Position numbers and translations under genes: made by a program. Below, in pieces: positions 39,953 through 57,224 of a stretch of DNA of 64,000 bases (within the stretch, counting starts at the first letter, position 1; every line of letters starts with the position of its first letter). This DNA is from Bordetella sp. H567 (GTDB lineage: Bacteria > Pseudomonadota > Gammaproteobacteria > Burkholderiales > Burkholderiaceae_B): positions 4,228,084 to 4,292,083 of the forward strand of contig NZ_CP012334.1 in assembly GCF_001704295.1 (NCBI RefSeq). The letters run 5' to 3'. The notes under the pieces are model-generated. The model was not told where the DNA came from, did not search any database, and saw only the letters and a list, made by a program, of their open reading frames with translations.

Positions 39953-41140
39953 TTACGAGGGACACCCCGATCCGCTGTGCCGGGCGACGGCCGGGAATTC
40001 CCCGAGCGTATTGCCCGCCTGCCTGCGGATTGTTTCCGCCAGATCCGGCGTCGGATGCTGATAACCGTAGCAGTACGGAGGGGCCGGCACCTGCTCGGGA
40101 CGGTAGTCCTGCAGCACGGGTTTCGCGTCGCCCAGGTAAAGATTGTCCTTCAAGCGCAAAAATGCCTTGAACTCCTGCTTGTAGCCATACTGACCCTTTG
40201 ATTTCTCGTAGTTGCGACGATCGGAATCGCCGTTGTCCAGCGCGCTTTTCTTGGGGGCATCCTGGATATAGCGGCAGTAGTTCACGTTGATGCCCTCGAC
40301 CGTCGGAAAGAACTCGGGCTCCACACACTTGCGCTGCGATACGTTGCTGAACATGTTTCCTTCGACCAGCGCACGCGCCTCCAGGCTGAAACTCATGCCG
40401 TAGAAATCCCAGTTCTCCAAGAGGTTGTTGAACAGGTGGAACGTCCCGAATTGCGCCCTTGGATTGCGTTGCACCGTATTCAGGAAATAGTTGTGGTGCA
40501 GGGTCACCCGCGCGATGGAATCCCGGCCGTAGTTCTGGAAAAGGTTTTTCGACGTTATGTTGTTGAGCAACATGACCTTGTCGGAATCATGAAATTTCGT
40601 CCACGAAACCGTGACGTCGGTCGAACCGTTCTTCACATTGAGCAGCCGATCAGAGAATCGCGACAGATCGAGATGGTCCACCCAGACATCCTGACTGCCA
40701 TTGGCCACATTCACGGCCTGGGTGAGCCGGCTGAATCGCCCGTCTATCGTCAGATGCGTGAGGATGACGTTCCTGCTGCCGTATATCCCCAACCCATCGT
40801 CGATCAAGGTGATGTGCTTGCCCCGTCCATCGATCGTGATGTTCGATGGCACGCGGATCTGCGACGCCAGCACGATGGTCATGTCGGACGCAAAGCGGAT
40901 CCACGTGGGCCCTTGGGCATGCTTGAGCGCCGCGCGCAATGTTCCCGGCCCCGCGTCCTTGTCGGATGTGACCTCGACGAACCGACCGCCGAGGCCGCCC
41001 GTGGCCTTTGCGCCGTAGCCTTCGCGTTGTTGCAGGAGTGACGAGACACTCGGACAATGCTCGTCCGCGATATTGCAGGAATCGCTCGCGGCGGCCACGC
41101 CGCCATACACCACCGCCAGGGCAAGAAGCCAGCGCATCAT
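39953..41140 (-). CDS. PL1-type pectate-lyase-family protein; probable capsule (Vi) lyase
   Basis: This 395-residue exported protein (signal MMRWLLALAVVYGGVAAA) has the right-handed beta-helix of polysaccharide lyase family 1: RFVEVTSDKDAGPGTLRAAL, SNITIDGRGKHITLIDDGLG, VWVDHLDLSRFSDRLLNV, VTVSWTKFHDSDKVMLL and VTLHHNYFLNTVQRNPRAQF, the last holding the catalytic arginine. PL1 enzymes cleave alpha-1,4-galacturonan by beta-elimination. As last gene of a Vi-type operon whose product is alpha-1,4-linked GalNAc-uronic acid, it most likely cleaves the capsule itself in the periplasm. AAGGAG fixes the ATG at 41140. I recall a Vi lyase being described in a related Achromobacter locus, but cannot verify this here. 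Confidence 0.88.
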   Translation of the reverse strand: MMRWLLALAVVYGGVAAASDSCNIADEHCPSVSSLLQQREGYGAKATGGLGGRFVEVTSDKDAGPGTLRAALKHAQGPTWIRFASDMTIVLASQIRVPSNITIDGRGKHITLIDDGLGIYGSRNVILTHLTIDGRFSRLTQAVNVANGSQDVWVDHLDLSRFSDRLLNVKNGSTDVTVSWTKFHDSDKVMLLNNITSKNLFQNYGRDSIARVTLHHNYFLNTVQRNPRAQFGTFHLFNNLLENWDFYGMSFSLEARALVEGNMFSNVSQRKCVEPEFFPTVEGINVNYCRYIQDAPKKSALDNGDSDRRNYEKSKGQYGYKQEFKAFLRLKDNLYLGDAKPVLQDYRPEQVPAPPYCYGYQHPTPDLAETIRRQAGNTLGEFPAVARHSGSGCPS

Positions 41141-41151
41141 ATCCATCTCCT

Positions 41152-42240
41152 TCAGGCCGACACCGGGGCAGTGAGAAAGGCGATATACCACGGCAGCGCT
41201 TCTTCCATCCCGCGCCGCAGATCCACCAGCGGAACGTACCCGATGCCGGTCTTCGCCTTGGATACGTCGGCTTGCGAATGCCGCACGTCGCCCTCACGAA
41301 ACGGCTTGTATGCCGGCGACAGCACATACTCGAAACCATGCGGCACCAAGCCGTCGCGAATGATGCCGAAAAGGTCGTTGAGCGTCGTGCGTCCCCCGAC
41401 GGCGACGTTATACACCTGGCTTGCGCCAGCCTCCTGGCGCAATGCCGCGCGCAGGTTCGCTTGCACGACATTGCCCACGAAGCAGAAATCGCGGCTGGTT
41501 TCACCGTCGCCGTTAATCTGGACGGGCCCGCCCTCGATGATGGAGGAAATCCATTTCGGGATCACGGCCGCATAGGCGCCGTTCGGGTCCTGGCGCGGCC
41601 CGAAGACATTGAAGTAGCGCAGGCCCGTGGAGGAGAATCCGTAGGTGCGACAAAACACATCGGCATAGATCTCATCGAAAAGCTTGGTGGCTGCATAGGG
41701 GGACAAGGGTTTACCGATACGGTCCTCGCGCTTGGGCAGATTGGGTTCGTCGCCGTAGGTGGAACTGGATGCGGCATAGACGAAGCCCCGGATGGACGCC
41801 CGCCGCGCCGCGTCCAGCATATTCAGGAATCCCGACACATTGACCTCATGCGTCGTCAACGGGTCCTTCACCGAGCGCGGAACGGAGCCCAGCGCCGCCT
41901 GATGCAGCACGTAGTCGACTTGCGCGACGGCCCGTTCGCACGCAGCCATGTCCCGGATGTCCGCCTCGTGCATCGTGAAGCGCGACCAGCAGCTGTCTCC
42001 GACATTCTTGCGGACCTCCTCCAGGTTGCGCCGGTGTCCCGTCGAGAAATTGTCCAAGCCGTGCACGTCCTGCCCGAGGAGCAGCAAGGTTTCCACGAGA
42101 TTGGAGCCGATGAAGCCGGCGGCGCCGGTCACCAGCCAGCGGCGGCGCTGCGCGCGCAATTCATCGCGAAGCTCACGCTGCGTCTTGTCGCGCAGCCAAG
42201 AGGGCATTGCCATATCCCGTTCGGGTTTGGTCGATTTCAT
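41152..42240 (-). CDS. tviC: UDP-GlcNAcA 4-epimerase, TviC/WbpP family
   Basis: A 362-residue extended SDR epimerase: NAD motif [17 protein letters not shown] at about 37, [17 protein letters not shown], the catalytic [13 protein letters not shown] (YxxxK) and [20 protein letters not shown], closest to TviC/WbpP-type 4-epimerases of UDP-GlcNAc and its uronic acid. In Vi synthesis it turns UDP-GlcNAcA into UDP-GalNAcA. ATG 42240 follows AGGAG at about ten bases. In the Salmonella locus tviC follows tviB; here it has moved to the far end after vexE, 13 bases behind it, and the lyase gene follows after 11. Confidence 0.92.
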
Positions 42241-42253
42241 CAGATCTACACTC

Positions 42254-44158
42254 CTATTGCTGCGCGGAACGATCCGCAGGCTTTACATGGCGCCAGATTC
42301 CCCCGCTCAAGCGCAGGTTTTCCGGAGGGCCGGCCAGGTGCTCCCTGAGCCGTTCGAAGTAGGCGCGCTGCCATCGCAGCGAATACGCGTCGGCGTCCTC
42401 GCCCGGTTCGACCGCGGGCAGCATTTCCAGGGTGAAGGCGACGCGGCCGTTCTCCCACCGAGGGGCGTAGAAAACCGAAGGCACGCCCAGGCGGTGCGCC
42501 ATATGGGAAGCAAAACTCGAATACGTCACTTCCTGCCCTTCGAAGGTGGTTCGCGGCGCAGCCGGATTCGCCGCACCATCAATGGCCAGACACAGCACGT
42601 AGCCCGATCCGAGCGCACGCAGGCAGGCCTTGGCGACCTGGGCTTCGGTCTGGTCGGCGGTGGATATCAAGGCCGCGGAGTAGCTGGCCCGGGCGATGTT
42701 CGGCGCGGTCGCGAGCCAGCGCGACGGGATGCCGACCAGTTCCAAGGCCATCAGCCCGGCATACATGGGACCGACGTGGGCCGTGGCCACCACGACGCCT
42801 CGCCCGGATGCAAGCAAGGGCGCGAAGAAACGCTCGCCGGCATCAAGATCGCCCAGCACCTGCATTGCCTCCTCGACCCGCTCCTCGCGGCATTCGATCC
42901 AATCGAACAGGAGGTGATCCACCAGATGGCCCCAGCGGGCCGCGCGCTCCCATTGCGCGCGATCGATATCGGGACCACGGCGCAGCGACCACGCCCAATC
43001 GAGGCGCGCCTGGGGTATTGGCGCGGTGTCGAGCCGTTCCTCCAGTTCGGCCAAGGCCTGCTGGAAGGTGTCGGGAAGCCGCGCGTCCCGTTTCGACAAG
43101 TATTGGCGATATAGCGCTTCAGCTTCCTGCTTGCGGCCTGCCTGGGAAAGCGCCGCGATGGCGGATCGCTGCCAGAGCAGCTTTTCGGGGGATTTATCCA
43201 GCACATGCAGCAGCTGATCGGCGGCCTCGGCGTACTGCTGCGAATAGCGCAACGCGCGCGCGTAGAGTATTCGGGTCTGCTCCAGTTCCGGTGCAAGATC
43301 GGTGGCCTGCTTGAGCGGCGCGACCGCGTCCTTGTAACGTCCGCCGCGCAGCAAGGTTTCGCCGTAAAGCGACAGCACTCTCACGTCCGACGGCGACATC
43401 TTCAAGGCGGCCTCGAAATGCGCCAGGGCATGCACCTTGCGATCCTCTTCCGACCCCCGCTGAAGATGCGACATGCCCAGGTAGGTACGCAAGCTGGTGC
43501 AATCGTGCCCGGCGCGCAATGCCGCGTCGCCAAGGCGGATCGCGGCCTCCGCCCGACAATCCTCGAACAAGGCACGCACGGCCATTGCCGCCACGCGCTC
43601 GCTAGGCAGTTTGTCCACGTCCAGGACCGCCGCCATGCGCGCCGCGTCGGCCGTATCCCCATTGCGGATGAATGCCAACATCCAGAAATGCGCCTGCCCG
43701 GGTTCGCTTGCCACCGTGTCGGCGGTCGCGCGAGCGATGGCCGCGGCATCCGACACCTGCCCGGCCTGCAGCCGCAATTGGATACGCGCGGCATGCAGCG
43801 CCACCGCATCCGGCTCGATCCCGGCAGCGGCATCCGCCTGGGCGATGGCCCGTTCCCACTGCTCCGTTCGTCCCAGCAGGCTGGCGAGCAAGCGCCGATC
43901 TTCGACGCGGGATGGATAGGCCTGCACGAGCACCTCGAGCGCGGCGATTGCCGGTGCGAACGCGCCCTCTCGCACGAAAGGAGAAACCAGCAATCGCCGG
44001 ACATCCCGCCCGCCATCGGCGGCTCGGACCAGTGCCGCATCCAAACTGGCCATCTCGCATGCCGGGTCCGCCGCGGATCGGATACTGCCGATGACGTCGA
44101 GCAGCCGGGTGGTGGCCTCGCGCGACGTGCCGTGACGATCTATCGTCATATCAACCAT
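42254..44158 (-). CDS. vexE: VexE-like TPR/acyltransferase for the capsule lipid terminus
   Basis: A 634-residue two-part protein. Residues about 50-330 are tetratricopeptide-like helical repeats ([40 protein letters not shown]). Residues about 380-600 resemble an LpxL-type acyltransferase with the active histidine in [15 protein letters not shown]. In Salmonella VexE is needed to add the reducing-end lipid that anchors Vi. The length is close to the Salmonella protein, by memory. It overlaps the vexD stop by 8 bases, with AAGGGGG eight bases before ATG 44158; a second ATG is three codons in. Confidence 0.88.
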
Positions 44159-45446
44159 GACGCAGCCCCCTTAACAAAGCCAAGGCAACGCGAACGATGA
44201 ACATCAGCACGAAACCGATGGCCAGCGCCTCCAATAGCAGCGTCCTCAGGCGCGGGCTGCTGGGCCGGTCCGTGGGAACCGGTTGCGCGATGATGGACAA
44301 ATACCGCTGCAAGCGCAGGGCGTCCACCATGGCTTGCTGATACGACTGCTGTGCCAAGGTCAGATTGGAATCCGCGAAAGCCTGGGCATTCCTGAGCGCT
44401 TCGTATGATTTGAGTTGCCGCGCTTCCGTATTGCCCTCGCCACTGAGGCGATGGCGTACTGCCACGATCCTTTTCTGCAAGGCGGCGACCTGCATCTGGG
44501 CAGGCTTGAGCATGGGATGGTCCTTGTTGCCCAGCGCGCGGATCTTGTCAAGACTGATCTGGGCGTTACTGAGTTCTCCTTCAAGCTGGCCGGAGAGATT
44601 CAGCAGCATCGCGACAGAAGCGGTGGGGTCGATATTGCCGTGGGACGTCCGCCAGGCGGTCAGCGCATCCCTGGCCTCGAGCGCCTTCTGCTCCGCAAGC
44701 CTGACCGACTCCTGGCTGACCTTCAGCTTGTCGGACACGCCCTTCTCGTTCAACCGGCTCACGAAGTCTTCCGCCAGGCCGATCAGCGCCTTGGACAGGA
44801 TCGCCGCGTCATCGGGGGAAAACGCGCTGACGCGCAGCACGTCGATCTGCTCCAGCACGTTGAAAGACACTTTGACCGACGCCTGGTAGGCGCGGTACAG
44901 ATCGTCCTCGCTGGCGTCTTCATCAAGGCGATTGGCCGGGTCCAACCCGTCATGGACCAGGTACCGGCGCAATCCCACTTTCTGGTCGAGCTGCCGCATG
45001 CAGTCGCGCGATTTCAGGAAATCGCTGACCGCCCATCCGTCCACGAATCCGCCAAGCATCCCCGACATGCTCCCCGTGGTCAGCAAACTGGCCGCGCCGG
45101 CGCCCGGCGCCTGCTGCCCGGAGCCCGACTGCACGAAGAATCGCGACTCCGCTTCATACCGGGGGGTAGCGACCGAAAGCGCATAGACCAGCGCGAACGC
45201 GACCGGCATGACCACGATGACCGCGTTGATCCAGCGGTGACGGCGGCGCTCGCGCAAGGCCGCCTGCCGGTCCCGGACGCGGCGCTCAATCTCGGACCCG
45301 CTATCAGAGGCCAAGCTGGCTGTCTCCGAAACCGCTTCCGAAGGCGTCTTCGCCTGCGCTGCCCGATTCGCTTCTGGATCGTCGGGGCGGGAACTTGCGG
45401 ATGCACTGGTCGAGGTCATCTTCGATTCTGAGCGTGCTTCCTTCAT
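44151..45446 (-). CDS. vexD: VexD/KpsE-like polysaccharide co-polymerase (inner-membrane exporter subunit)
   Basis: The 431 residues have a Ser/Glu-rich cytoplasmic start, a membrane helix (WINAVIVVMPVAFALVYALS) at about 75, then a long periplasmic part starting TPRYEAESRFFVQSGSG, with coiled-coil in the 240-370 region, and a second helix LEALAIGFVLMFIVRVALAL near the end. This is the layout of KpsE/BexC/VexD proteins that bridge the ABC exporter to the outer-membrane channel. The ATG at 45446 lies 143 bases inside the end of vexC; the first 45 residues are therefore encoded in the overlap. ATG 45419 would shorten this by 9 residues. Confidence 0.9.
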   Translation of the reverse strand: MKEARSESKMTSTSASASSRPDDPEANRAAQAKTPSEAVSETASLASDSGSEIERRVRDRQAALRERRRHRWINAVIVVMPVAFALVYALSVATPRYEAESRFFVQSGSGQQAPGAGAASLLTTGSMSGMLGGFVDGWAVSDFLKSRDCMRQLDQKVGLRRYLVHDGLDPANRLDEDASEDDLYRAYQASVKVSFNVLEQIDVLRVSAFSPDDAAILSKALIGLAEDFVSRLNEKGVSDKLKVSQESVRLAEQKALEARDALTAWRTSHGNIDPTASVAMLLNLSGQLEGELSNAQISLDKIRALGNKDHPMLKPAQMQVAALQKRIVAVRHRLSGEGNTEARQLKSYEALRNAQAFADSNLTLAQQSYQQAMVDALRLQRYLSIIAQPVPTDRPSSPRLRTLLLEALAIGFVLMFIVRVALALLRGLRHG

Positions 45447-46035
45447 ACACTAAGCCTTTGAAGCAATAGTCCGCCATCTGGTTCTGGCGATAACTGGAGA
45501 AAACGAGCGTCCGGCCAACCAGCCGCTCTTCGAACAGCGCCAGCCACAGACGGGTGAAGCGGCAGGGCTCGAAAGGAATGGCGCCTTCGATCACATAGAC
45601 ATCGAAGGCAGGCGCCAGCGCGAGCGCAAACGAGAATTCCTGCCGTGCGTATAGCGGCCAATGCTCCATGGGCAGGGCCAGGCATTTCGGATCGCTGATG
45701 AGATCCGCGACGAGTTCGACCGTGGCATCCGCGTCGATCTCGTACATTTCACACACGAACTCGATCATGCGCAGGCCGTTGGCCTTGCCGCGGATGAAGC
45801 CTTGCCGGCCGATGGCCCAGGAGACGCTGCCATCGTGCGTGACAAAACCATAGGAGGGCGGACGAAGGCGACACAACACATCGATGATCTGTCGATGCAG
45901 TTCCGGCGCGGGCGACAGCAGCGCGTAGCGTCCGACGGGGATGTCGAGATCGACGTTGGCAAGCAGCGGCTGCCGCTTTCCGAATGCATAAGGTTCGTCG
46001 GTCACGCCGTTCAGATGGATCATCACGGTGCTCAC
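45304..46035 (-). CDS. vexC: VexC/KpsT-like export ATPase subunit with degenerate catalytic motifs
   Basis: A 243-residue protein that follows KpsT/VexC ATPases from end to end: strand LLANVDLDIPVGRYALL, then SWAIGRQGF and GLRMIEFVCEMYE as in the WPVG and GREN segments, FDVYVIEGA where FDxYLIDE should be. Yet Walker A (residues about 41-48) reads SPAPELHR, with no Gly-Lys-Ser; the signature (about 127-131) reads WPLYA instead of YSSGM; Walker B has Glu-Gly instead of Asp-Glu; and the H-loop is FSSYRQ, without His. It overlaps vexB by 4 bases and vexD by 143. It is clearly coding and homologous, but ATP hydrolysis looks impossible. The last 30 residues are a Ser/Gly tail. Confidence 0.85.
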   Translation of the reverse strand: MSTVMIHLNGVTDEPYAFGKRQPLLANVDLDIPVGRYALLSPAPELHRQIIDVLCRLRPPSYGFVTHDGSVSWAIGRQGFIRGKANGLRMIEFVCEMYEIDADATVELVADLISDPKCLALPMEHWPLYARQEFSFALALAPAFDVYVIEGAIPFEPCRFTRLWLALFEERLVGRTLVFSSYRQNQMADYCFKGLVYEGSTLRIEDDLDQCIRKFPPRRSRSESGSAGEDAFGSGFGDSQLGL

Positions 46036-47378
46036 ATCGGCTGGATATTGCTGCGGGCCAAACGCTCGGCCGCAAGGGCGACAACCGCCAGGAAAACCAG
46101 CGAAGTCAGGAAATAGCTCAAGCTCGCATCCTGCGACGTGTAGCTATTGAAGTAGGCCGAGCGCAGGAGTTGCATGCCATGCGCGAACGGCGACCATAGG
46201 ATGAAGGACTGGAACTGCTCTGGCAGCTGCTCCGAAACAAAGAACACTCCCGAAACTATCTGCAGAAACCGTTCGATCACCGGCGCGAGCCTGAGGAAAA
46301 AATGCCAGCCCGTCGCGATCGAGCCGAACAGCACGCCCATGGCCGCACCGCAGCAACCCATCAGCACGACATAGGCCATGAATCCCACCCAGCTCTCGGG
46401 CAGCGTGATCAGCCCCAATGCGCTACCGGCGCTGATCAACACGACGAACACCCCGACATACACCGAGACATAGATAAAGGCCTGCACCAGCGCGCCCATG
46501 AGCGGCGTGACCCCTTGGAAGTTCAGCATTCCACGGGCCGACACGTAGCTGGTGCTGCTCCTGAAGATGATCTGCCGGAACATGATCCAGGTCGTCGCTC
46601 CCAACAAGGAGAACGTCGGCACATCCATGCCGAGGATGTAATGCGTTCCCATCACGATATACAAGGACGAAATCAGCGTAAGCAATACCACGGGCCCCAC
46701 CAGCGCCCATAGCAACGCGATCCGGCTCTCCCCATGCATCACGTGCAACTGATAGATGAACATGGGCAACAGGGTGCGCAAGCGCGGCCGCCCCTCGTCG
46801 ACATCGCGCGGACGATACCCATCGTGCAATGCGCGCAAGCGTTCGCGCAGGATTGCCAGATCCCCCGCCTCTTCCCGCGAAAGTTCGATCTGCAGCGCAA
46901 TGTCGTTGCGCGAGGCATGGCGGCGCGCGTTTTGCGCCTCTTCGAGCTTGCGCCGTTGCGCCCGGCGTGCGTGCGCCGCGCCCAGGCGCTCGTCTTCCTC
47001 CACCAGCCTGGCCGGCAAGTATCCCGGCGCGAACACATCGACACCCGCGCGGATGTCCAGTTCGACCAGCCGCACGATAATGCGCAGGCGCCGACGGGGG
47101 AAATCAGCAACGGTCTCGGCATGGCCACTACGCTCGATCTCTCCTTCCAGCTCCGACTGTATGGCGTCATAGACCGCCCGCCGTGCCGCCACCGTATCGT
47201 GCGGCTGGCCCAGCAGCCGCGCAAGCAGGGGCTTGAGCAAGGCGGCAGGCGAAGTTTTAACGTCGAACAGCGCGGTCGGATCCAGGCGCCATGCGGCGAC
47301 ACCGGAACCTACCGCGTAGTTTCCACCCTGCCGGCGCGCGCGCCAGCCTTTGATACGATCCTCGTTGCTCATCGACAC
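46032..47378 (-). CDS. vexB: VexB/KpsM-like ABC-2 permease with extra N-terminal domain
   Basis: The 448 residues are much longer than usual for this family (about 260). Residues about 205-445 are the ABC-2 transporter domain with six membrane spans (ALLWALVGPVVLLTLISSLY first; VFFVSEQLPEQFQSFILWSP and the loop FAHGMQLLRSAYFNSY near the end, as in KpsM). Residues 1-200 are soluble, charged and mainly helical, with RRKLEEAQNARRHASRNDIA likely coiled-coil, and match no motif I know. It begins one base after the vexA stop, so it is in the export block of the operon. The added domain probably faces the cytoplasm. Confidence 0.88.
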   Translation of the reverse strand: MSMSNEDRIKGWRARRQGGNYAVGSGVAAWRLDPTALFDVKTSPAALLKPLLARLLGQPHDTVAARRAVYDAIQSELEGEIERSGHAETVADFPRRRLRIIVRLVELDIRAGVDVFAPGYLPARLVEEDERLGAAHARRAQRRKLEEAQNARRHASRNDIALQIELSREEAGDLAILRERLRALHDGYRPRDVDEGRPRLRTLLPMFIYQLHVMHGESRIALLWALVGPVVLLTLISSLYIVMGTHYILGMDVPTFSLLGATTWIMFRQIIFRSSTSYVSARGMLNFQGVTPLMGALVQAFIYVSVYVGVFVVLISAGSALGLITLPESWVGFMAYVVLMGCCGAAMGVLFGSIATGWHFFLRLAPVIERFLQIVSGVFFVSEQLPEQFQSFILWSPFAHGMQLLRSAYFNSYTSQDASLSYFLTSLVFLAVVALAAERLARSNIQPM

Positions 47379-47379
47379 G

Positions 47380-48531
47380 CTATCGATTCGCGCCTGAACT
47401 TGAGCCTGAGTCGCTGTCGATCGCCCGCGTGGCGCTGAAGCCGGCGCTCATGGTCACCCTGAATGCCGACAGGACCTTCTGCACCTGGGTAAACGGAGCA
47501 TCCGATATATAGATTGCCTCCCCTTCGCGTACCGTGAACTGGCGTGCCAGCGCCACCTGCTCCGGACGAGTGAGGTCGAACTGGTAGACGATGGGGACGC
47601 TGTCCGGCTTGCCTTCGACACCGGCCTTCGCGGGCGTAAACAAGAACACGGAGCGTGGGTCCGCCGTCTTGTCATCCAGGCCGCGGGCATCGCCCAAGGC
47701 ATCCAGCACGCTATAGTTGCGCTTGCTGATGGCAACGCGCCCTTGATTCCCGGCCGCGCCCAATACCGTCAGATACTCCCGAGCATCATGCGCCGTGATG
47801 ACATCGCCCGAGCGCAAGAGGATGTCGTTCTCCTGGTTGCGGTAGATATCCGACAGGCGCACCGACGTGACCTCGTTGCCCCGGCGCAGCGTAATCACGA
47901 GCTGCTCGGGATTCGTCTGGACCGGTGCCGCCAGCGCCAGCGCGCTGCTCAGCCTTTGGGAAGTCTGTGTAATGGGATACATGCCGGGCTTGGTCAGGTT
48001 GCCCTGGACTGTCACCATCTGCCCGCGCGCATCGGCGCGCGTCACGCTCACGTCGGATCCGATCGTGAGCTTGCTCAAGCGGGCCACGATGGCGTCATGC
48101 AGCTCGGTCAGCGTCAAGCCGGCCGCCCGGAATTTACCGATCATGGGAAGGTAGATCGCACCCGACCGGTCTATCTCATGGTTTCCCAGGTCGCTCATGC
48201 CGGCGGGATTGGCCCCGAAAACGCCCAAGCCATCGCGCTCCCAGACCGTGACGTTTATCCCGTCGCCAGGGACCAGGCGGTCGAAACCCGCTTGAGTCTC
48301 GTCACGATAGCGCGCCGGAAAATCCGCGATGGGCGACACGTTGCTCGCCCGCGCGAGTTGTGGCGAGACCGGTACGACGACGACGTCCTTGTCGTCGTTC
48401 GCGGACGTCATCTCGCTCAACATCGGACCGGAGCGCGGCAGCTGGCATCCCGCGAGCGAAAGTGTGGCGAGCAGCATCATGAGCAGGGCGCTCTTGCGTC
48501 GCAGCCCTGAAACCGGGATATTCATTTGCAT
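47380..48531 (-). CDS. vexA: VexA/Wza-type outer-membrane polysaccharide export lipoprotein
   Basis: A protein of about 383 residues with a lipoprotein signal (SALLMMLLATLSLAGC), the Poly_export domain (RLVPGDGINVTVWERDGLGV, LPMIGKFRAAGLTLTELHDA) and SLBB-type repeats (VTVQGNLTKPGMYPIT; LTVLGAAGNQGRVAI). OPX proteins form the outer-membrane channel for capsule. The start is uncertain: ATG 48531 or 48525 gives a normal lipoprotein signal, while TTG 48573 has GGAGG five bases upstream and directly follows the tviE stop, but would make the leader 43 residues. Confidence 0.9.
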   Translation of the reverse strand: MQMNIPVSGLRRKSALLMMLLATLSLAGCQLPRSGPMLSEMTSANDDKDVVVVPVSPQLARASNVSPIADFPARYRDETQAGFDRLVPGDGINVTVWERDGLGVFGANPAGMSDLGNHEIDRSGAIYLPMIGKFRAAGLTLTELHDAIVARLSKLTIGSDVSVTRADARGQMVTVQGNLTKPGMYPITQTSQRLSSALALAAPVQTNPEQLVITLRRGNEVTSVRLSDIYRNQENDILLRSGDVITAHDAREYLTVLGAAGNQGRVAISKRNYSVLDALGDARGLDDKTADPRSVFLFTPAKAGVEGKPDSVPIVYQFDLTRPEQVALARQFTVREGEAIYISDAPFTQVQKVLSAFRVTMSAGFSATRAIDSDSGSSSGANR

Positions 48532-48573
48532 AAAAGCCAGTAGGTTGAAGATCGCGGGAGGATCGTCGGGCAA

Positions 48574-50634
48574 TCATGCCTCCATCAGACGCATCGGGCC
48601 GATACCGAGGGGCTCATCGTTCCTGGACGTCCCCATGACGGTCACGCACAGGCTCAGGAATTTGCTCAGCATCGCATTGAGCGAAAACAAGTCCCGCGCA
48701 CGCTGGCGGCTATGCTGCTTCAACACATCGTTGCTGCGCATCAAGTCCACGATGGATTCGATTTTGTCGCACGCCTCGTTCAGGTCCGGGTGCTCGACGT
48801 CACCGAGCAGATGGCCGGTCACATTCTCGACAAAGCATTCGCCCGCGCCCCCGGCGGGCGTCGAGACCACCGGGACACCCAGGAGCTGTGCCTCGATAAG
48901 CACGTTGGGCAAGCCTTCGTATCGGGACAGCAGCACCTTGGCATCCATGCGCGTATACCAGTAGCCCACGTGATTCGACAGGCCTACGAACAACAGTCGG
49001 TCCGTCACGCCAAGCTCCTGCGCCAACGCAACCATGTTATCGAGCAGGCGCCCGTCACCCACGATGAAGAAGCGTGCATTGGGACGCCGCTTGAGGTACT
49101 GCGCGGCGAGCTTGATCCACAGTTGCGGCCTTTTATCCGGCTCCAGCCGGAACACGCCGCCTATCGTTTCCGTGGCATCGGGCGTGCTTTCCTGGAACGC
49201 CGTCCATTTTTTCTCGTCTTCGGCCGACGCGCTGGTCGCCAGCTCCGGCACGCCGTTATACAGGATATGAAAACGCACGATCGGAATACCGAGCCATTTC
49301 GCATACTCCTGGGCGGCCGTGCGGCTATTGCTGACGAAATGCACGCCCGGCACTTGAGCCAGGGCCTGGTACAGCGCCGGATACTCCTCGCGGTAGCGAT
49401 CCTTGCGAATATTCGGCGGCAGCCCCCGAAACACCAGGTGTATGGTGGGCACGCCGGCCAGCAAGGCCGCCAGCGCACCGAACAGGCATGTGCCGTCCTG
49501 CCACAAGCTCACGACGTCGAACGGGTTCGCGCGCAGCAGCGGCGTGAGGCGGGTGACACCGTAGTGTACGGGGGGCGGCAGCTGTTCCAGCAAGCGGGTC
49601 AGGGCGGGATCGGCGACGGATTGATGGGAGGTCGAGATCGCGGGCAATCCGTTGATTTCCGTGACCGGAATCTGCGCATCGGCCAGCACCGGAAGGAAAA
49701 AATCCAGCCCCTGTTTTTTGCCGGACCCGGAAGGCTCGGTGTGCTGCTTCACCAGCACCTCGACCTTTTCCGGCTTCACGCGCATGAAGGACGGCAGGCG
49801 ATCCGCGGACGCCGCCATGCGATGCAGTTCGCCCGCGAGTCGCGTCAGTTGCCGTTCAGCCCCGCCGGGGCCAAGGCTGCCCGTGACGAGCGCGATCGAG
49901 ACACGGTTATCCGACGACTGCTCCTCGATCTCCCGGTCCCGGAAGTGCAGGATCGCATGCTTCATCGACACGATCCGGATGTCCGTTCCGGCAAGCCCCT
50001 CTTCCGGCTCGAAGCCCCGGTAGAAGGCATAGTCGTTCGCCAGGGTGCTGGCCAGCTCGGCCGCCTTGCTGCCGGGAACAAGCTGGTCGGCGACGGGCTT
50101 GATCGTCTCGTAGGCGTCCGCCAACAACCCGCGTTTGCGTAGGCGCTTGGCGAATTCGATGCGCACATTGCGATCGTCATGACGCGCGATCAGGCGACGA
50201 AACAGCGCATCGGACTGCTCGTATGCGCGGATGTCGCTAAGCAGCTTGGCGCGGGCGAACAGCATGTCGGGATCGTCGCTGGACTCCGGAATATAGCGCT
50301 CGATCAAGGCCAGCGCATCGTCGATATGCCTTTCCTTGACGAGACGCGAGGCGCAATAGCGCACGACCTGAAGATCATCCGGACATGCGCGCAGTAGCTC
50401 CGCCCACTGCTCGGACATGCCCTCGTTCAAGCCGGCGAGCTCCTTCAGCCGCAGCAGAAGAAAGCGGACTTTCGGGTCCGCCATGTGATCTTGCGCCAGG
50501 GCTTGCGCGCGGGTCAGGTTGCCCTGAGCGAGCTGCACCCTGCCCGACGTCGCCACGATTTGCTCCAATTGGGTGCGAACCCATTGGAGACTGGACGTAT
50601 CGTCCTCCCGCTCGGGATCCGCTCGATAGTTCAT
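48574..50634 (-). CDS. tviE: TviE-like glycosyltransferase (GT4), probable capsule polymerase
   Basis: The 686 residues have a helical TPR-like N-terminal part (about 20-190) and a GT-B glycosyltransferase. The latter's donor domain includes GGVFRLEPDKRPQLWIKLAA, FFIVGDGRLLDNMVALAQEL and RYEGLPNVLIEAQLLGVPVV, the GT4 E-x7-E motif region. TviE is the enzyme thought to link GalNAcA units in Vi. The start overlaps the tviD stop by four bases. The N-terminal extension makes it longer than the Salmonella protein as I remember it. Confidence 0.9.
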   Translation of the reverse strand: MNYRADPEREDDTSSLQWVRTQLEQIVATSGRVQLAQGNLTRAQALAQDHMADPKVRFLLLRLKELAGLNEGMSEQWAELLRACPDDLQVVRYCASRLVKERHIDDALALIERYIPESSDDPDMLFARAKLLSDIRAYEQSDALFRRLIARHDDRNVRIEFAKRLRKRGLLADAYETIKPVADQLVPGSKAAELASTLANDYAFYRGFEPEEGLAGTDIRIVSMKHAILHFRDREIEEQSSDNRVSIALVTGSLGPGGAERQLTRLAGELHRMAASADRLPSFMRVKPEKVEVLVKQHTEPSGSGKKQGLDFFLPVLADAQIPVTEINGLPAISTSHQSVADPALTRLLEQLPPPVHYGVTRLTPLLRANPFDVVSLWQDGTCLFGALAALLAGVPTIHLVFRGLPPNIRKDRYREEYPALYQALAQVPGVHFVSNSRTAAQEYAKWLGIPIVRFHILYNGVPELATSASAEDEKKWTAFQESTPDATETIGGVFRLEPDKRPQLWIKLAAQYLKRRPNARFFIVGDGRLLDNMVALAQELGVTDRLLFVGLSNHVGYWYTRMDAKVLLSRYEGLPNVLIEAQLLGVPVVSTPAGGAGECFVENVTGHLLGDVEHPDLNEACDKIESIVDLMRSNDVLKQHSRQRARDLFSLNAMLSKFLSLCVTVMGTSRNDEPLGIGPMRLMEA

Positions 50635-53111
50635 GCCGCCTTCCTACGGTTGGCCTTCTCGATCCAAACCAGGCACCTATGGATATAGTGGTCGAACTGC
50701 TCCGGCTTGTCGGAACGCTCCTTGAGCAGCTCCCAATAGGGCAGCGCCTGCTCGAAGCGGTGCAAACGCATCGCGCCCACGGCCGCCGCGCGCAGCCCGA
50801 CGGGATCGTCCGGAACGAGCTGCAGGATCCGTTCGCCAAGCGCAAGACGCTCGGTCGCGCTGGACGGATCCAGCGCTCGCGCTTCGGCATACAGCACCGC
50901 GAGGATGCGCCGCTTTTCATGGGCGACTTCCGGCATCTCCGGCCAGGACTGCGCGATGCGATCCAACAGCTTCCATGCCCCATGATGGTCGCCCGCCGAC
51001 AACATCTCGCGCGCAGCGCGAATCGAACGCGGCCCGAGCCGCCGCAGCTGACGCTCGGCCTCCTCTTTCGCGTTCTGGTCGGCCGACGCGTGCCCCAGCA
51101 CGGCGGTGTAGGCGTCGATTGCTTCGCCAAACCAGCCGCCGGTGAATGCCACTCTCGCAAAATGCAGCAGCGTGCTGAACGGGGCAGACTCCCCGGCTGC
51201 CGCGAGCTCGAGATGCCGCATGGCCGTTTGCTTGTCGCCCAGGGCGTCCGCGGCCCGTCCACGCATTGCGTCAAGCTCGGGGAAATCGACGCGTGCGTCG
51301 AGCGCGATATCCGTGAGCTCGATCACCTCTTTATGGTTGCCCGCCAGGAGGGCGGCGCGTACGGCCAGCCGCATCGCGCGCTCGAACGTACGCTGCGCGC
51401 GCACGCCGGACAGGGCGTCGGGCGCAAGCAGCCGGTGCGCGCAAATCCTCTCGGCCGCGTCGCGCAGGCGGCCTTCGTCCAGGGCACGCGCGCCCTCCTC
51501 GGCCCACGCGGACGACTGCGCAAGCAGCCATGCGCGTATATCTTCTGTTTCGCTATTAGCCAGCCCGCACGACACCGCCAGCGCGGCCGCGGCCACCATG
51601 CAGCCTCGCCACGACGCTTCCTTGACCAGCTCCAGGGCGTCGAAGTCCGCAAGCGCGGGCGATTCGGCCGCCAAGGCGCGCAGCGCGGCGCGATCGCCAG
51701 CCATCAAGCGATCGCGCCACAGTACGGCAAAGCCTCGACCATACGAAGGCAGCGACGCGCGGACCTCATGCACCCAGCGAATGACGGCCTGCATGTCCCC
51801 ACTGGACTGCAACATCGAGAGCACCGTGTCAGCAGCCTCCGTCGCCAACGCTTCATCGTTGGATGCGATGCGGAACAGTTGCCGCCAGTTGCTCAGGGCC
51901 TCGTCGATCTTGCCCAGCTGCCCCGCGGAAGCCGCCGCGATCCGGACGATTTCCGGCGTCTCTATCTCGTCGCCGAGCAAGCCGGCCGCCAGCGAATATG
52001 CGACATCGTGGTGTCCCAGCTTGAAGTGGTTGCGCATCAGGATCTGTTCGGCCTTGCTGCCCGAAGCTACCCCGCCGTCCGCGTTCTCCAGCAGGGCGAG
52101 GGAGCCTTCATAATCGCCCAGCTCTCCTTGTATCCGTGCCAGCAGCGTCACATGGTCAGGCAGCCCGGGATGTCTGCGCAGCACCTCGCGCACGCGCCGC
52201 GATGCCTCCAGGAATTCACCCGTATCCCACACCTTTTCGATGCGCTCGGCGGCTTCGTCGGCGGCAAGCCTTGCCGCCACCGGCGATGGCGTGGATACGC
52301 TTATCCTCGGACGCATATAGTTCTTGTACCAATCGGCGCACAGGCGCTCGGCGAACACTTCCGTGTAATGGGTAAGGTCGAGTCCGCCGTCTTCCAAGGC
52401 GTCCGCCTGGCCTATCTTGTTCATCAGCGGCGTCGGGTCGTAACAGGGCACGCCGATGCGCTCGGCACCCGCCACCACGGCGGCGATCAGTTGCTCGCGC
52501 TGCTCGATGGGCACGTTGTCCGGCGTCAACGCATTGACATGCGTGACGAATATCACCTTCTCCTTGCCGAGCAGGTCGACAAGCCCGCGCATATCGCTCT
52601 CGATCTCGTCATCGCCCAGGTCACGCCTGACGATGCGAGCGAGCAATTCGCGGTCGTCCGCCGGCAGACTCTTGAACACCGGGTCTTGTTGGAGCAATTC
52701 GCGCCGTTCCGCAAGCTTATCGTCCGCCGCCAGGGACCAGAACGAGCGGGTACGCGCACGGTCGGCGAAGAACTCGCTGAAATAACGCCCCAGATAGTTG
52801 GACTGGATGGGATAGCCGTCGATGGTCAGCAGCTTGCGCGACGACAACTCCACCATGTACAGGTCGGCCGGCTTGTGCGTCCCGCGGCGGGCCTGCTCGC
52901 CGTTCGAGGGCCGGAAAATCAAGCGTTGGACGTCGGCAGGAATCTCGGCCTGGCCGTACATGAATCGCGCCTGTTGAAGCGCCTCCGCACTCGTATGCAC
53001 AAAGCCGTAGTTGCGCCCGAGTTGCAGCTTGAGCGGATAGCGCCCCACGGCATCTCGCAGCGGCGTATGGATACGGCAGGTTCCGATCGGAGCGATGGTA
53101 AAAGCAGCCAT
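50631..53111 (-). CDS. tviD: TviD-like capsule O-acetyltransferase (SGNH-like domain + TPR)
   Basis: A protein of 826 residues, close to the length of Salmonella TviD as I recall it. Residues about 1-280 look like an SGNH-type domain: an early FTIAPIGTCRIHTPL loop where the nucleophile would lie, VIFVTHVNALTPDNVPIEQR, and a DLTHYTEVFAERLCADW end with the Asp-His pair. From about 300 to the end are TPR-like repeats (GELGDYEGSLALLENADGG; LEQALPYWELLKERS). It is proposed to add O-acetyl groups to the GalNAcA chain. It lies 37 bases behind tviB. Confidence 0.88.
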   Translation of the reverse strand: MAAFTIAPIGTCRIHTPLRDAVGRYPLKLQLGRNYGFVHTSAEALQQARFMYGQAEIPADVQRLIFRPSNGEQARRGTHKPADLYMVELSSRKLLTIDGYPIQSNYLGRYFSEFFADRARTRSFWSLAADDKLAERRELLQQDPVFKSLPADDRELLARIVRRDLGDDEIESDMRGLVDLLGKEKVIFVTHVNALTPDNVPIEQREQLIAAVVAGAERIGVPCYDPTPLMNKIGQADALEDGGLDLTHYTEVFAERLCADWYKNYMRPRISVSTPSPVAARLAADEAAERIEKVWDTGEFLEASRRVREVLRRHPGLPDHVTLLARIQGELGDYEGSLALLENADGGVASGSKAEQILMRNHFKLGHHDVAYSLAAGLLGDEIETPEIVRIAAASAGQLGKIDEALSNWRQLFRIASNDEALATEAADTVLSMLQSSGDMQAVIRWVHEVRASLPSYGRGFAVLWRDRLMAGDRAALRALAAESPALADFDALELVKEASWRGCMVAAAALAVSCGLANSETEDIRAWLLAQSSAWAEEGARALDEGRLRDAAERICAHRLLAPDALSGVRAQRTFERAMRLAVRAALLAGNHKEVIELTDIALDARVDFPELDAMRGRAADALGDKQTAMRHLELAAAGESAPFSTLLHFARVAFTGGWFGEAIDAYTAVLGHASADQNAKEEAERQLRRLGPRSIRAAREMLSAGDHHGAWKLLDRIAQSWPEMPEVAHEKRRILAVLYAEARALDPSSATERLALGERILQLVPDDPVGLRAAAVGAMRLHRFEQALPYWELLKERSDKPEQFDHYIHRCLVWIEKANRRKAA

Positions 53112-53148: not shown

Positions 53149-54426
53149 CTAGAGAGTCCAGTACAAGAGATCCGACTGAAGCCGGCTGCTATCGAGCACG
53201 GATTTCAAGTCGCAGACCATGCCGCCGCTCTTGACCAGCTGCGGCATGTCCTCCCAGATGGATTCCATGGTCTGACGGTGGGGAACGGCGAGGATGAGCA
53301 CGTCCATGCCCTTGAAGTTCTTCGGGTCCACCAGCTTGATGCCGTACTCGTGCTCCATCTGGGCCGGATCGGCCATCGGGTCGCTGGCCACGGGAGTAAT
53401 GCCGTAATTGCCCAGGGCGTTATAGAGATCGACGACCTTGGAATTGCGGATGTCCGGGACGTTCTCCTTGAACGTCATGCCCAGGATGCCGACGCGGGTC
53501 GAGGCATTGAGGCGGCCATTGCGAGCCAGTACCTGGACGACGCGCGACGCGACGTGATTGGCCATGCCGTCGTTGATCCGGCGGCCCGACAGGATCACTT
53601 CGGGGTGATAGCCAAGCTCTTGCGCTTTCGAGGTCAGGTAATACGGATCGACGCCGATGCAATGGCCACCCACGAGGCCCGGCGTGAACCGCAAGAAGTT
53701 CCACTTGGTGCCGGCGGCGGCCAGTACCTCCGAAGTACGGATGCCGACCAGGTCGCAAATCTTCGACATCTCGTTCATCAACGCGATGTTGATGTCGCGC
53801 TGCGTGTTCTCCAGGACCTTCGCGGCTTCAGCCACCTTGATGGAAGACGCGCGGTGCACACCCGCATCGATGATCTTCTCGTAGACACCGGCGACCGTTT
53901 CCAGCGTTTCCGCATCCTGGCCGGACACGATCTTGACGATCTTTTCCAGCGGGTGGTCGCGATCGCCCGGGTTGATCCGTTCGGGGCTGTAGCCCAGCTT
54001 GAAGTCGATGCCGCAACGCAAGCCGGAGGCTTTTTCCAGTTCCGGCCCGCAGATTTCCTCGGTCGCGCCGGGGTGGACGGTGGACTCGAACACCACAATG
54101 TTGCCGGGGCGCAGCACCGGGCCTATCGATTGGCAAGCCCGTACGAGCAGCGAAAAATCCGGGTTGCACTTCTCGTCCACAGGGGTGGGAACGGCCACTA
54201 CGAAGAAATCGCAGCCCTCCAGCTCCGTCACCGTGTCCGTAAACAAAATGTTGGAGGCAAGCAGCGCGTCGCGCTCGATCTCGCCAGTCCAGTCATCGCC
54301 CTCTTTCAGGCGGGCGATCCGTCGCTTGTCCACATCAAAGCCGATGACGTCGAAGCGCTTGGAAAACGCCACGGCAACCGGTAGGCCCACGTACCCAAGG
54401 CCACACACTGCGATTTTTTTGACCAC
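53149..54426 (-). CDS. tviB: UDP-GlcNAc 6-dehydrogenase (TviB)
   Basis: With the GTG start at 54426 (after GAGGTAGCA) the protein is 425 residues, which I recall as the length of Salmonella TviB. Motifs: NAD site KIAVCGLGYVGLPVAVAFSK at the start, FESTVHPGATEEICGPELEK, the active-site cysteine in GLVGGHCIGVDPYYLTSKAQ, and a C-terminal UDP-binding domain (GILGMTFKENVPDIRNSKVV). It oxidises UDP-GlcNAc to UDP-GlcNAcA with two NAD+. It is the first gene of the capsule operon. The longer open frame to 54495 lacks family likeness. Confidence 0.95.
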   Translation of the reverse strand: MVKKIAVCGLGYVGLPVAVAFSKRFDVIGFDVDKRRIARLKEGDDWTGEIERDALLASNILFTDTVTELEGCDFFVVAVPTPVDEKCNPDFSLLVRACQSIGPVLRPGNIVVFESTVHPGATEEICGPELEKASGLRCGIDFKLGYSPERINPGDRDHPLEKIVKIVSGQDAETLETVAGVYEKIIDAGVHRASSIKVAEAAKVLENTQRDINIALMNEMSKICDLVGIRTSEVLAAAGTKWNFLRFTPGLVGGHCIGVDPYYLTSKAQELGYHPEVILSGRRINDGMANHVASRVVQVLARNGRLNASTRVGILGMTFKENVPDIRNSKVVDLYNALGNYGITPVASDPMADPAQMEHEYGIKLVDPKNFKGMDVLILAVPHRQTMESIWEDMPQLVKSGGMVCDLKSVLDSSRLQSDLLYWTL

Positions 54427-54999
54427 TGCTACCTCACTATTACCCGTGGTGTCAGGGACACCGGAAGTGGACGCCCATAGACAACGGCGAAACACTTTGT
54501 CTACTACGCGGGGCGTATCGCTAAAGAGTCCTTACATCTGACGCGATATCAAGCCGAAGTTGGTCGATGTCGGCGTTCAGGTCGGTGAATGCTAGACGTA
54601 AGGTTGAGGTAGCTTCTTTCCAAAGATTTTCATTGCTGTGGAAATGAATCAGGGAATACCCGGAAAAGAGAGCAATCCACCGCAATGAATTACATTGATT
54701 ACACAACTCGCAATGGAACCGATGCGGCAATTCTTTAAATGCGTTTTAAAGCGTGTCTTTTCTTTTTTCTTAATAGAAACGCAATAAAAGATGACCAGCC
54801 ATGTCGAATTCCCGGAACCTTGGCGGCGAATCACCGGAGAATGAAGCGCTGCGTTGGAGCCAGCGCCCTGCTCGGCAAGCTCATGTGCCGAGGGCGTCGT
54901 CGTGCTGTCGGTGCGGAAGAACGAGTGCGGATGCCGCCCCATACCTCCGTCGATGCGGTGCCACACTACGCCGCGGAAGACCCGCTGTTGTCGCAGCTC
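54427..54999. promoter_or_regulatory. AT-rich control/leader region of the capsule operon
   Basis: The 573 bases between the helicase gene and tviB contain no convincing gene. From about 54600 to 54800 the sequence is notably AT-rich compared with its surroundings. It holds a 13-base inverted repeat: TTCATTGCTGTGG (54629-54641) and CCACCGCAATGAA (54677-54689), with 12 of 13 matching and a 35-base spacer. A third GCAATG occurs at 54710-54715. No ops/JUMPstart element (GGCGGTAG) and no TviA-like gene were seen. The promoter of the operon must lie here on the minus strand. Confidence 0.6.
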
Positions 55000-56853: not shown

Positions 56854-57224
56854 GACTTCGTCAGTTTGTCGTACTTGGTACTGACTCCCCGCGATGTCTC
56901 GATGGGGTACTTGGCGGCGTTGGACGCCAGCTTGCTGGCGACGGCCGCGTTCAGATCGACCCCGAGCACGTCAGCGAGCCGAATAAGGTACAAGGCGACA
57001 TCAGCGAGTTCGTCGCGCACCGCACGGGCAGTCTTGGGGGCCGTAGCAGCGGTGTGCGAGTCGGCCTCGCTCATCCACTGAAAGATTTCCGTCAGTTCGC
57101 CGACCTCACCCGAAAGCGCCATCACCAGGTTCTTGGGCGAATGGAACTGTTGCCAATCGCGCTCTTCGGCAAATTGCCGTAGCGCCTGTGCTGCACCGTC
57201 GACGTCAATCAAACTCTTTTCCAT
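56850..57224 (-). CDS. MazG-like nucleotide pyrophosphohydrolase
   Basis: A 124-residue all-alpha NTP pyrophosphatase: FAEERDWQQFHSPKNLVMAL, SGEVGELTEIFQWM (the ExxE metal pair) and VRDELADVALYLIRLADVLG (the ExxD pair), matching the short MazG/iMazG type. It hydrolyses (d)NTPs to monophosphates; house-cleaning and phage-defence roles are both known in the family. ATG 57224 follows AAGGGG by seven bases. It is coupled to the helicase gene and lies downstream of tRNA-Lys. Confidence 0.92.
   Translation of the reverse strand: MEKSLIDVDGAAQALRQFAEERDWQQFHSPKNLVMALSGEVGELTEIFQWMSEADSHTAATAPKTARAVRDELADVALYLIRLADVLGVDLNAAVASKLASNAAKYPIETSRGVSTKYDKLTKS

What the first reader, a model, noticed from the sequence alone, without database searches (positions are those of the whole stretch)
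45304..46035. Capsule-export ATPase (VexC) that has lost all ATPase motifs
The protein aligns with KpsT/VexC over its whole length and sits in the right operon slot between vexB and vexD. Nevertheless Walker A reads SPAPELHR instead of GxNGAGKST, the signature reads WPLYA, Walker B Asp-Glu is Glu-Gly and the H-loop His is Tyr. Loss of all four with preservation of frame, length and fold-defining segments suggests a selected pseudo-ATPase, not decay. Export then needs another energy source: a second ATPase elsewhere, a heteromer, or the extra VexB domain. If general to this lineage it would be an unusual ABC-2 exporter.
Basis: partly seen in the sequence, partly recalled or inferred. Interest (0 to 1): 0.88.

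Follow-up and report, generated by a model that had tools for sequence, protein, structure and literature searches.

The report
Capsule exporter with a dead motor
In the Vi-type capsule gene clusters of Achromobacter- and Caballeronia-like bacteria, the protein that should burn ATP to push the sugar chain out of the cell has swapped its catalytic residues for other, equally fixed ones, so it looks like a selected 'dead motor' and the exporter is probably powered in some other way.

Summary
The minus-strand gene 45304-46023 is a KpsT-type ABC ATPase by descent (hhalign 8e-25), but Walker A, Q-loop, signature, Walker B, D-loop and H-loop are all replaced.

63 of 63 distinct proteins from 86 loci share the replacements. 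61 of 268 family genomes carry it, and the same 61 carry VexE. It also occurs in another Burkholderiales family and on Caballeronia plasmids. Median dN/dS is 0.12, lowest of seven operon genes tested. The relatives read outside the clade are canonical KpsTs.

So it is an old, selected pseudo-ATPase, not decay. VexB carries a ~200-residue extension that a 398-genome phylum sample found only in two genomes, both with this locus. Ten operon proteins show no classic P-loop; 18 of 59 carriers show no KpsT/Wzt-like ATPase at E<=1e-10.

The energy source is not shown. I favour a nucleotide-independent VexB-VexC gate with the chain pushed by its synthesis; a trans-acting ATPase is the main rival. Ten literature searches listed no report of it; two key papers were not held.

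The parts
45304..46023 (-). vexC: KpsT-type pseudo-nucleotide-binding subunit, 239 aa (alternative GTG start at 46035)
45889..45915 (-). former Walker A, residues 37-45: SPAPELHRQ in place of GxNGAGKST; S37, P40, E41, H43, R44 invariant in 63 of 63
45790..45792 (-). place of the consensus Q-loop Gln, now Arg78 (invariant in the 11-row alignment; entropy under 0.3 in the 63)
45637..45666 (-). former signature region, residues 120-129 EHWPLYARQE; E120, W122, P123, R127, Q128, E129 invariant in 63 of 63
45583..45600 (-). former Walker B, residues 142-147; Asp146 is Glu in 60 and Asp in 3 of 63, catalytic Glu147 is Gly in 63 of 63
45556..45576 (-). former D-loop, residues 150-156 PFEPCRF; the family's invariant Gly152 is Glu in 63 of 63, Asp153 is Pro in 61
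45490..45492 (-). former H-loop His, now Tyr178 (63 of 63)
46032..47378 (-). vexB: KpsM-type ABC-2 membrane subunit with an N-terminal extension
   Evidence: PF01061 E 9e-7; KpsM chain 8tsh_C E 4e-12 over residues 199-445
46773..47378 (-). VexB N-terminal extension (about 200 aa, predicted helical; cytosolic by position, inferred)
44151..45446 (-). vexD: BexC/CtrB/KpsE-type co-polymerase
   Evidence: TIGR01010 E 3e-61, below its cut-off
42254..44158 (-). vexE: Vi terminal acyltransferase with TPRs
   Evidence: NF011721 E 2e-272, 905 bits, below its cut-off of 1200
47380..48573 (-). vexA: outer-membrane polysaccharide export protein
48574..50634 (-). tviE: Vi polymerase (family 4 type glycosyltransferase)
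   Evidence: NF011726 965 bits, over its cut-off of 733
50631..53111 (-). tviD: TviD-like protein (called the O-acetyltransferase in PMC9597891)
   Evidence: NF011727 E 7e-76, below cut-off
53149..54495 (-). tviB: UDP-sugar dehydrogenase
41152..42240 (-). tviC: UDP-GlcNAcA C4-epimerase
   Evidence: NF011728 E 3e-133, below cut-off
39953..41191 (-). pectate-lyase-family protein, likely the Vi lyase VexL
   Evidence: PF00544 E 4e-23; the name VexL is from PMC9597891 (passages); identity with it was not tested

Best explanation
VexC of this lineage is a conserved pseudo-nucleotide-binding subunit. Shown: it is homologous to KpsT, its ATP-site motifs are replaced by other fixed residues, and it has the lowest dN/dS of seven operon genes tested. 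Inferred: it still sits under VexB as a dimer but cannot run the ABC ATP cycle, so VexB2-VexC2 is a nucleotide-independent gate and assembly platform. Invariant basic residues at the old P-loop (H43, R44) and acidic ones at the old signature and D-loop (E120, E129, E152) may staple the dimer where ATP once did. Inferred and least sure: the chain is driven outward by its own synthesis (TviE with TviD), docked through the extra domain of VexB. My shares: no canonical ATP hydrolysis by VexC 0.95; docked structural subunit of VexB 0.75; synthesis-driven export 0.35.
For: Homology: hhalign 99.6%, 8.2e-25 over residues 16-213, ungapped within the Walker A, signature, Walker B and H-loop sites; PDB KpsT 3e-17. 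Replacement is fixed: K->H, S->R, signature S->P, catalytic E->G and H->Y in 63 of 63. Of 27 positions invariant in 16 intact KpsT/Wzt, four are kept in 62-63 of 63 rows, two keep the family residue in a minority (Tyr211 in 15, Asp146 in 3), and at the other 21 the commonest residues differ. Selection: median dN/dS 0.123 over 738 pairs, against 0.152-0.193 for vexA, B, D, E, tviE and tviD. Grouping: 17 pseudo rows lie on one side of a branch (100/100) with a stem of 4.0 changes per column. Obligatory with the locus: VexE and pseudo-VexC occur in the same 61 of 268 genomes. VexB stays KpsM-like. Its extension was found only with pseudo-VexC in 398 sampled genomes; 18 of 21 frames read upstream of canonical KpsTs in carrier genomes are 264-304 codons. 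No classic P-loop in ten operon proteins; the next most common neighbour gene is in 7 of 44 loci compared. In the solved system E151Q in KpsT abolishes capsule detection (PMC11041684, passages); the aligned residue is Gly here. Vi synthesis and export are thought to be temporally coupled (PMC9597891, Discussion).
Against: No experiment shows export through this VexB-VexC or that VexC cannot bind nucleotide. The structure predictions are poor (mean pLDDT VexC 41, VexB 54), so dimer and docking are inferred. In E. coli carrying the Salmonella viaB locus a vexC insertion leaves Vi in the cell (PMC3448643, passages), so there the chain does not push itself out. The membrane part of VexB alone has nearly as low a dN/dS (0.130), while its extension has the highest of those measured (0.214). 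The former Walker A stretch as a whole is no more conserved than the rest (mean entropy 0.753 against 0.715), although five of its nine sites are invariant, and 6 of 189 shifted masks were as conserved as all motif sites together. The ion-pair staple is only a reading of the letters.
Confidence: 0.6

Rival explanations
1. A trans-acting ATPase: VexB is driven by an intact NBD encoded elsewhere, as its own dimer, and VexC is an accessory or regulatory subunit.
For: The genome holds at least 150 ABC_tran matches and an intact Wzt-type ATPase at C1:5283978. 41 of 59 carriers have a KpsT/Wzt-like match at E<=1e-10.
Against: 18 of 59 carriers have none at that threshold (only 39 candidates per genome were scored). 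The own Wzt has an ABC-2 membrane gene beside it. In three relatives a canonical KpsT sits in a second cluster with vexA-, vexB- and vexD-like genes. Near the operon I saw only a helicase-domain gene in the window and an import-type ABC ATPase in 5 of 44 loci. It does not explain why VexC itself is so constrained.
Confidence: 0.22
2. Noncanonical nucleotide use: VexC binds or hydrolyses a nucleotide with the new invariant residues at the old site (P40, E41, H43, R44, W122, Y178).
For: The new residues sit at the old ATP site and are invariant, as an active site would be.
Against: P-loop glycines, Lys, catalytic Glu, His switch and signature are gone; no Pfam family and no classic P-loop.
Confidence: 0.08
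3. VexC left transport and became an enzyme or regulator of the Vi synthase; VexB works without any NBD.
For: A nearly invariant block PFEPCRFTRLW at the old D-loop.
Against: The gene keeps its place between vexB and vexD, and the region after the Q-loop still aligns with KpsT; that this region contacts the permease is recalled, not tested.
Confidence: 0.08
4. Decayed copy or sequencing error in a locus on its way out.
For: None beyond the loss itself.
Against: 63 of 63 distinct proteins share it; median dN/dS 0.12; frame and length kept.
Confidence: 0.01

Closest known systems
KpsMT-KpsE capsule exporter (PDB 8tsh/8tsi, S. thermodepolymerans; E. coli group 2 kps)
   Same: KpsM-like VexB, KpsT-like VexC and KpsE-like VexD; best PDB hits of VexB and VexC
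   Different: KpsT needs its Walker B Glu for capsule secretion (PMC11041684, passages); VexC has none of the motifs, and VexB has a 200-residue extension
Salmonella Typhi viaB exporter VexABCD
   Same: Same genes TviB-E and VexA-E; VexE model at 905 bits, TviE over cut-off
   Different: Its VexC is described as the ATP-binding motor (PMC3448643, passages); the Salmonella VexC model does not match here, the VexB model (264 positions) only at E 0.0017. Its sequence was not fetched
ABC exporters with one degenerate site (TM287/288, BmrCD, PatAB in the listing; TAP and CFTR recalled)
   Same: Catalytic residues of an ABC site are lost by selection
   Different: There one of two sites stays active (listing); here one subunit type lacks all motifs, so its homodimer has no site
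Pseudokinases and other pseudoenzymes (recalled)
   Same: Fold kept, catalytic residues replaced, scaffold role
   Different: I recall no fully motif-less NBD that serves as the only NBD of an ABC exporter

Membership tests
KpsT-type ABC ATPase (capsule exporter NBD) | Sequence homology over most of the length | tested here: met
   hhalign 8.2e-25 over residues 16-213 of 239; PDB KpsT 3e-17
KpsT-type ABC ATPase (capsule exporter NBD) | Walker A GxxGxGK[ST] | tested here: not met
   SxxPExHR in 63 of 63
KpsT-type ABC ATPase (capsule exporter NBD) | ABC signature (SSG-like) | tested here: not met
   Ser->Pro in 63 of 63; the Gly is Tyr 53, Phe 6, His 2, Ala in the two Caballeronia rows
KpsT-type ABC ATPase (capsule exporter NBD) | Walker B with catalytic Glu | tested here: not met
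   Glu->Gly in 63 of 63
KpsT-type ABC ATPase (capsule exporter NBD) | H-loop His and Q-loop Gln | tested here: not met
   Tyr178 in 63 of 63; Arg78 at the consensus Gln
KpsT-type ABC ATPase (capsule exporter NBD) | Gene beside a KpsM-type permease | tested here: met
   vexB upstream, KpsM-like
KpsT-type ABC ATPase (capsule exporter NBD) | ATP hydrolysis that drives export | not testable with these tools
   needs protein
VexC as defined by NCBIfam NF011724 (Salmonella) | Score over the 313-bit cut-off | tested here: not met
   no match at E<=0.1
Vi capsule locus | TviE polymerase over its model's cut-off | tested here: met
   NF011726, 965 bits against 733
Vi capsule locus | VexE over its model's cut-off | tested here: not met
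   905 bits against 1200, E 2e-272
Vi capsule locus | Vi polymer on the cell surface | not testable with these tools
   A. denitrificans is called a Vi producer in PMC9597891 (passages); not tested for this strain

The most novel reading that the evidence does not exclude
A whole lineage of capsule exporters has turned an ABC transporter into an ATP-free channel: a KpsT-derived dimer held together by its own side chains, with the polysaccharide pushed through the membrane by the synthase docked on the permease. It would be an ABC-fold exporter that is not a primary active transporter.
Probability: 0.35. Interest if true: 0.93.

Novelty: new variant of a known kind. Interest (0 to 1): 0.8.

Why it matters
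ABC-dependent capsule export is taken to be ATP-driven, and how far ATP turnover or chain synthesis moves a polymer through such exporters is open. This lineage is a natural experiment: an exporter of the same family that lost the ATP site long ago, kept the subunit under strict selection, and has a permease domain not seen elsewhere in the sample. Showing export here without ATP turnover would separate the structural role of the nucleotide-binding dimer from its motor role. It also warns of annotation: two plasmid records call this protein 'ATPase'.

Tried and rejected
Structure prediction of VexC and VexB from 21 close homologues gave low confidence (mean pLDDT 40.9 and 53.8). Foldseek on the VexC model ranked three KpsT chains (8tsl, 8tsi, 8tsh) first, but with E 0.007-0.055 and TM-scores under 0.3, so I count it as weak; the VexB model gave nothing at E<=0.001. 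The VexB extension has no convincing Pfam match (best 0.0037, in 1 of 13 members) and no PDB relative (best E 0.42). A pattern scan of viral contigs found no relative. VexE relatives on two of the four Mesorhizobium plasmids listed (36-37% identity) and on a Marinibacterium plasmid have no vexBC annotated nearby, so they show no intermediate. No Wzt C-terminal domain was found in the own genome. An enterobacterial VexC was not fetched; its motor role is taken from a paper. I considered that another frame or a frameshift hides the motifs: rejected, because 63 distinct proteins keep this frame.

The first dN/dS run had a slip: the window's CDS was trimmed at the wrong end and its pairs dropped; it is superseded.

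Counts that are partial: one search gave 37 matches in 36 of 196 genomes, of which I read 20 loci (5 pseudo, 15 intact; one intact locus also held a chance pattern match in another frame), and 17 matches were not read. In one search the 10 matches outside the own genome were read and are intact. In one search I gave 58 of the 61 family carriers plus G515; G033, G039 and G116, the three under 90% complete, were left out. The 86 loci include genomes fetched twice; 63 is the number of distinct proteins. For one search I left out the 30 loci with short flanks and eight others that were repeats or partial. The tree tool warned that long branches meet.

Papers: passages only of PMC9597891 (plus its Discussion), PMC4264864, PMC10999152, PMC3448643, PMC9430717, PMC11041684 (78, plus its Discussion) and PMC12220298. 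All others were seen as listings, several of them capped (for example 10 of 217 and 12 of 57).

Full report
What is there. The finding lies in a ten-gene Vi-type capsule operon on the minus strand: tviB, tviD, tviE, vexA, vexB, vexC, vexD, vexE, tviC and a pectate-lyase-family gene. vexC is 45304-46023 (239 aa; a GTG four codons upstream also fits). TviE scores over its NCBIfam cut-off; VexE matches its model at E 2e-272 but below the cut-off.

The protein is a KpsT relative. Pfam does not recognise it and the Salmonella VexC model does not hit it. phmmer finds the solved KpsT of S. thermodepolymerans at 1e-13, a profile finds it at 3e-17, and a profile-profile comparison with 20 intact KpsTs gives 99.6% and 8.2e-25 over residues 16-213, ungapped within the Walker A, signature, Walker B and H-loop sites.

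Its catalytic elements are replaced. Walker A GxNGAGKST reads SPAPELHRQ; the consensus Q-loop Gln aligns with Arg78; the signature YSSGM reads WPLYA; Walker B DE reads EG; the D-loop GD reads EP; the H-loop His reads Tyr. In the solved KpsT the single change E151Q abolishes capsule detection (PMC11041684, passages); the aligned residue here is Gly.

It is lineage-wide. The own genome and the five others held for the genus carry it, the five at 86-87% identity. In the family 61 of 268 genomes, 12 of 43 genera, carry it. The VexE model finds the same 61, and VexC was read by script in all 61. A scan of named genomes with VexE gave 18 Vi loci with vexC in records named Achromobacter, Bordetella, Castellaniella, Eoetvoesiella and Schauerella, all with the same motifs, plus one distant match without vexC. 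Outside the family it is in G515 (order sample of 399 genomes; the other two matches at E<=1e-12 are the own genome and G003), in four more genomes of G515's genus, and on two Caballeronia plasmids with the whole operon; a third plasmid hit is cut by the start of the record and its vexC was not read. In all, 86 loci give 63 distinct proteins, and all 63 have K->H, S->R, signature S->P, catalytic E->G and H->Y. The Walker B Asp is Glu in 60 and Asp in 3.

There are no intermediates among what I read. In one search the scores drop from 397 to 80 bits. Below the gap the motifs are canonical: 10 of 10 in the class sample and 15 of 15 of those read. On the tree of 17 pseudo and 16 intact rows the pseudo group is one side of a branch (100/100) with a stem of 4.0 changes per column and short branches inside; the tool warns that long branches meet there.

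Selection. Over 738 of 903 pairs of 43 distinct loci (those with dS 0.05-1.0), median dN/dS is 0.123 for vexC codons 1-190, which exclude the overlap with vexD. It is 0.153 for vexA, 0.166 vexB, 0.157 vexD, 0.193 vexE, 0.152 tviE and 0.164 tviD; within vexB it is 0.130 for the membrane part and 0.214 for the extension. In the 40 pairs with the window vexC has 0.105, the others 0.143-0.179. Against the deepest relatives VexC is the best-kept of the proteins compared in L121; the lyase is better kept in L120 and tviC in L152. The former motif sites are more conserved than the rest (mean entropy 0.444 against 0.715), but 6 of 189 shifted masks do as well, and the Walker A stretch taken alone is not more conserved than average.

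The permease partner changed too. VexB is KpsM-like from residue 199 on and carries about 200 further N-terminal residues, present in the 21 VexBs aligned and in G515 and Caballeronia. They are predicted helical, with pLDDT 66-88 over residues 31-150, match no known domain convincingly, and in 398 genomes of the phylum were found only in the own genome and G515, both with pseudo-VexC. Of 21 frames read upstream of canonical KpsTs in carrier genomes, 18 are 264-304 codons from stop to stop; the other three (L048-L050, 329-398 codons) begin with sequence unlike KpsM and their true starts were not set.

Where could energy come from? None of ten operon proteins has a classic P-loop. Among 44 loci compared, the next most common neighbour gene is in 7; the ATPases I saw nearby are a Schlafen-type helicase-domain gene upstream in the window and an import-type ABC ATPase in 5 loci. 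The own genome has at least 150 ABC_tran matches, but its best KpsT/Wzt-like one is a Wzt with an ABC-2 permease beside it. Of 59 carriers, 18 have no KpsT/Wzt-like match at E<=1e-10 (the search scored 39 candidates a genome). From the known geometry of ABC dimers (established knowledge) a mixed dimer of VexC with an intact NBD would have no complete site, because VexC gives neither Walker A nor signature. What remains is an NBD pair that displaces VexC, or export without ATP turnover in the exporter. Vi synthesis and export are thought to be coupled (PMC9597891, Discussion read), which is why I put synthesis-driven export first, at 0.35. Against it, E. coli with the Salmonella viaB locus and a broken vexC keeps the polymer inside (PMC3448643, passages), though there VexC is the motor.

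Is it new? Ten literature searches were run. None listed a paper that, by its listing or the passages I read, reports a motif-less VexC or a motif-less sole NBD of an ABC exporter; several listings were capped. Two papers most likely to mention it, Wear 2022 and Liston 2016, are not held, so I cannot say that it is unreported. I class it as a new variant of a known kind: by descent a KpsT, by the membership test not an ABC ATPase.

Names. That A. denitrificans, the studied Vi producer, has the same VexC was not tested.

Noticed in passing
window 41152-42240: A tviC homologue was found in the neighbourhood only in the window, L045 (G003) and L152 (G515) by tblastn, and an SDR gene holds that place in the Caballeronia loci; the other loci with wide flanks gave none, so the precursor may come from elsewhere.
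   Followed up: partly
window 55000-57224: A Schlafen-group-3 helicase-domain gene with a MazG-like gene upstream of the capsule operon, a pair that looks like a defence or mobile cassette.
   Followed up: no
L127 (G044): vexC and vexD form one open frame in this genome, so VexC and VexD could be fused.
   Followed up: no
L048, L049, L050: Three of six genus genomes carry a second kps-type cluster with intact KpsT and vexA-, vexB- and vexD-like neighbours.
   Followed up: partly
L121 (G027:C1:18141): G027 carries two Vi operons; VexC of the second is 60% identical to the window's, and both have pseudo-VexC.
   Followed up: partly
L164, L165: Mesorhizobium plasmids have a VexE-like protein (36-37%) beside three glycosyltransferases, with no vexBC annotated nearby: perhaps a related glycolipid pathway.
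   Followed up: no
window 46773-47378: The VexB extension has the pattern RRxxY...RxxR...RLxExDxR, which recalls (from memory) a helix-pair motif of alphaproteobacterial proteins.
   Followed up: no
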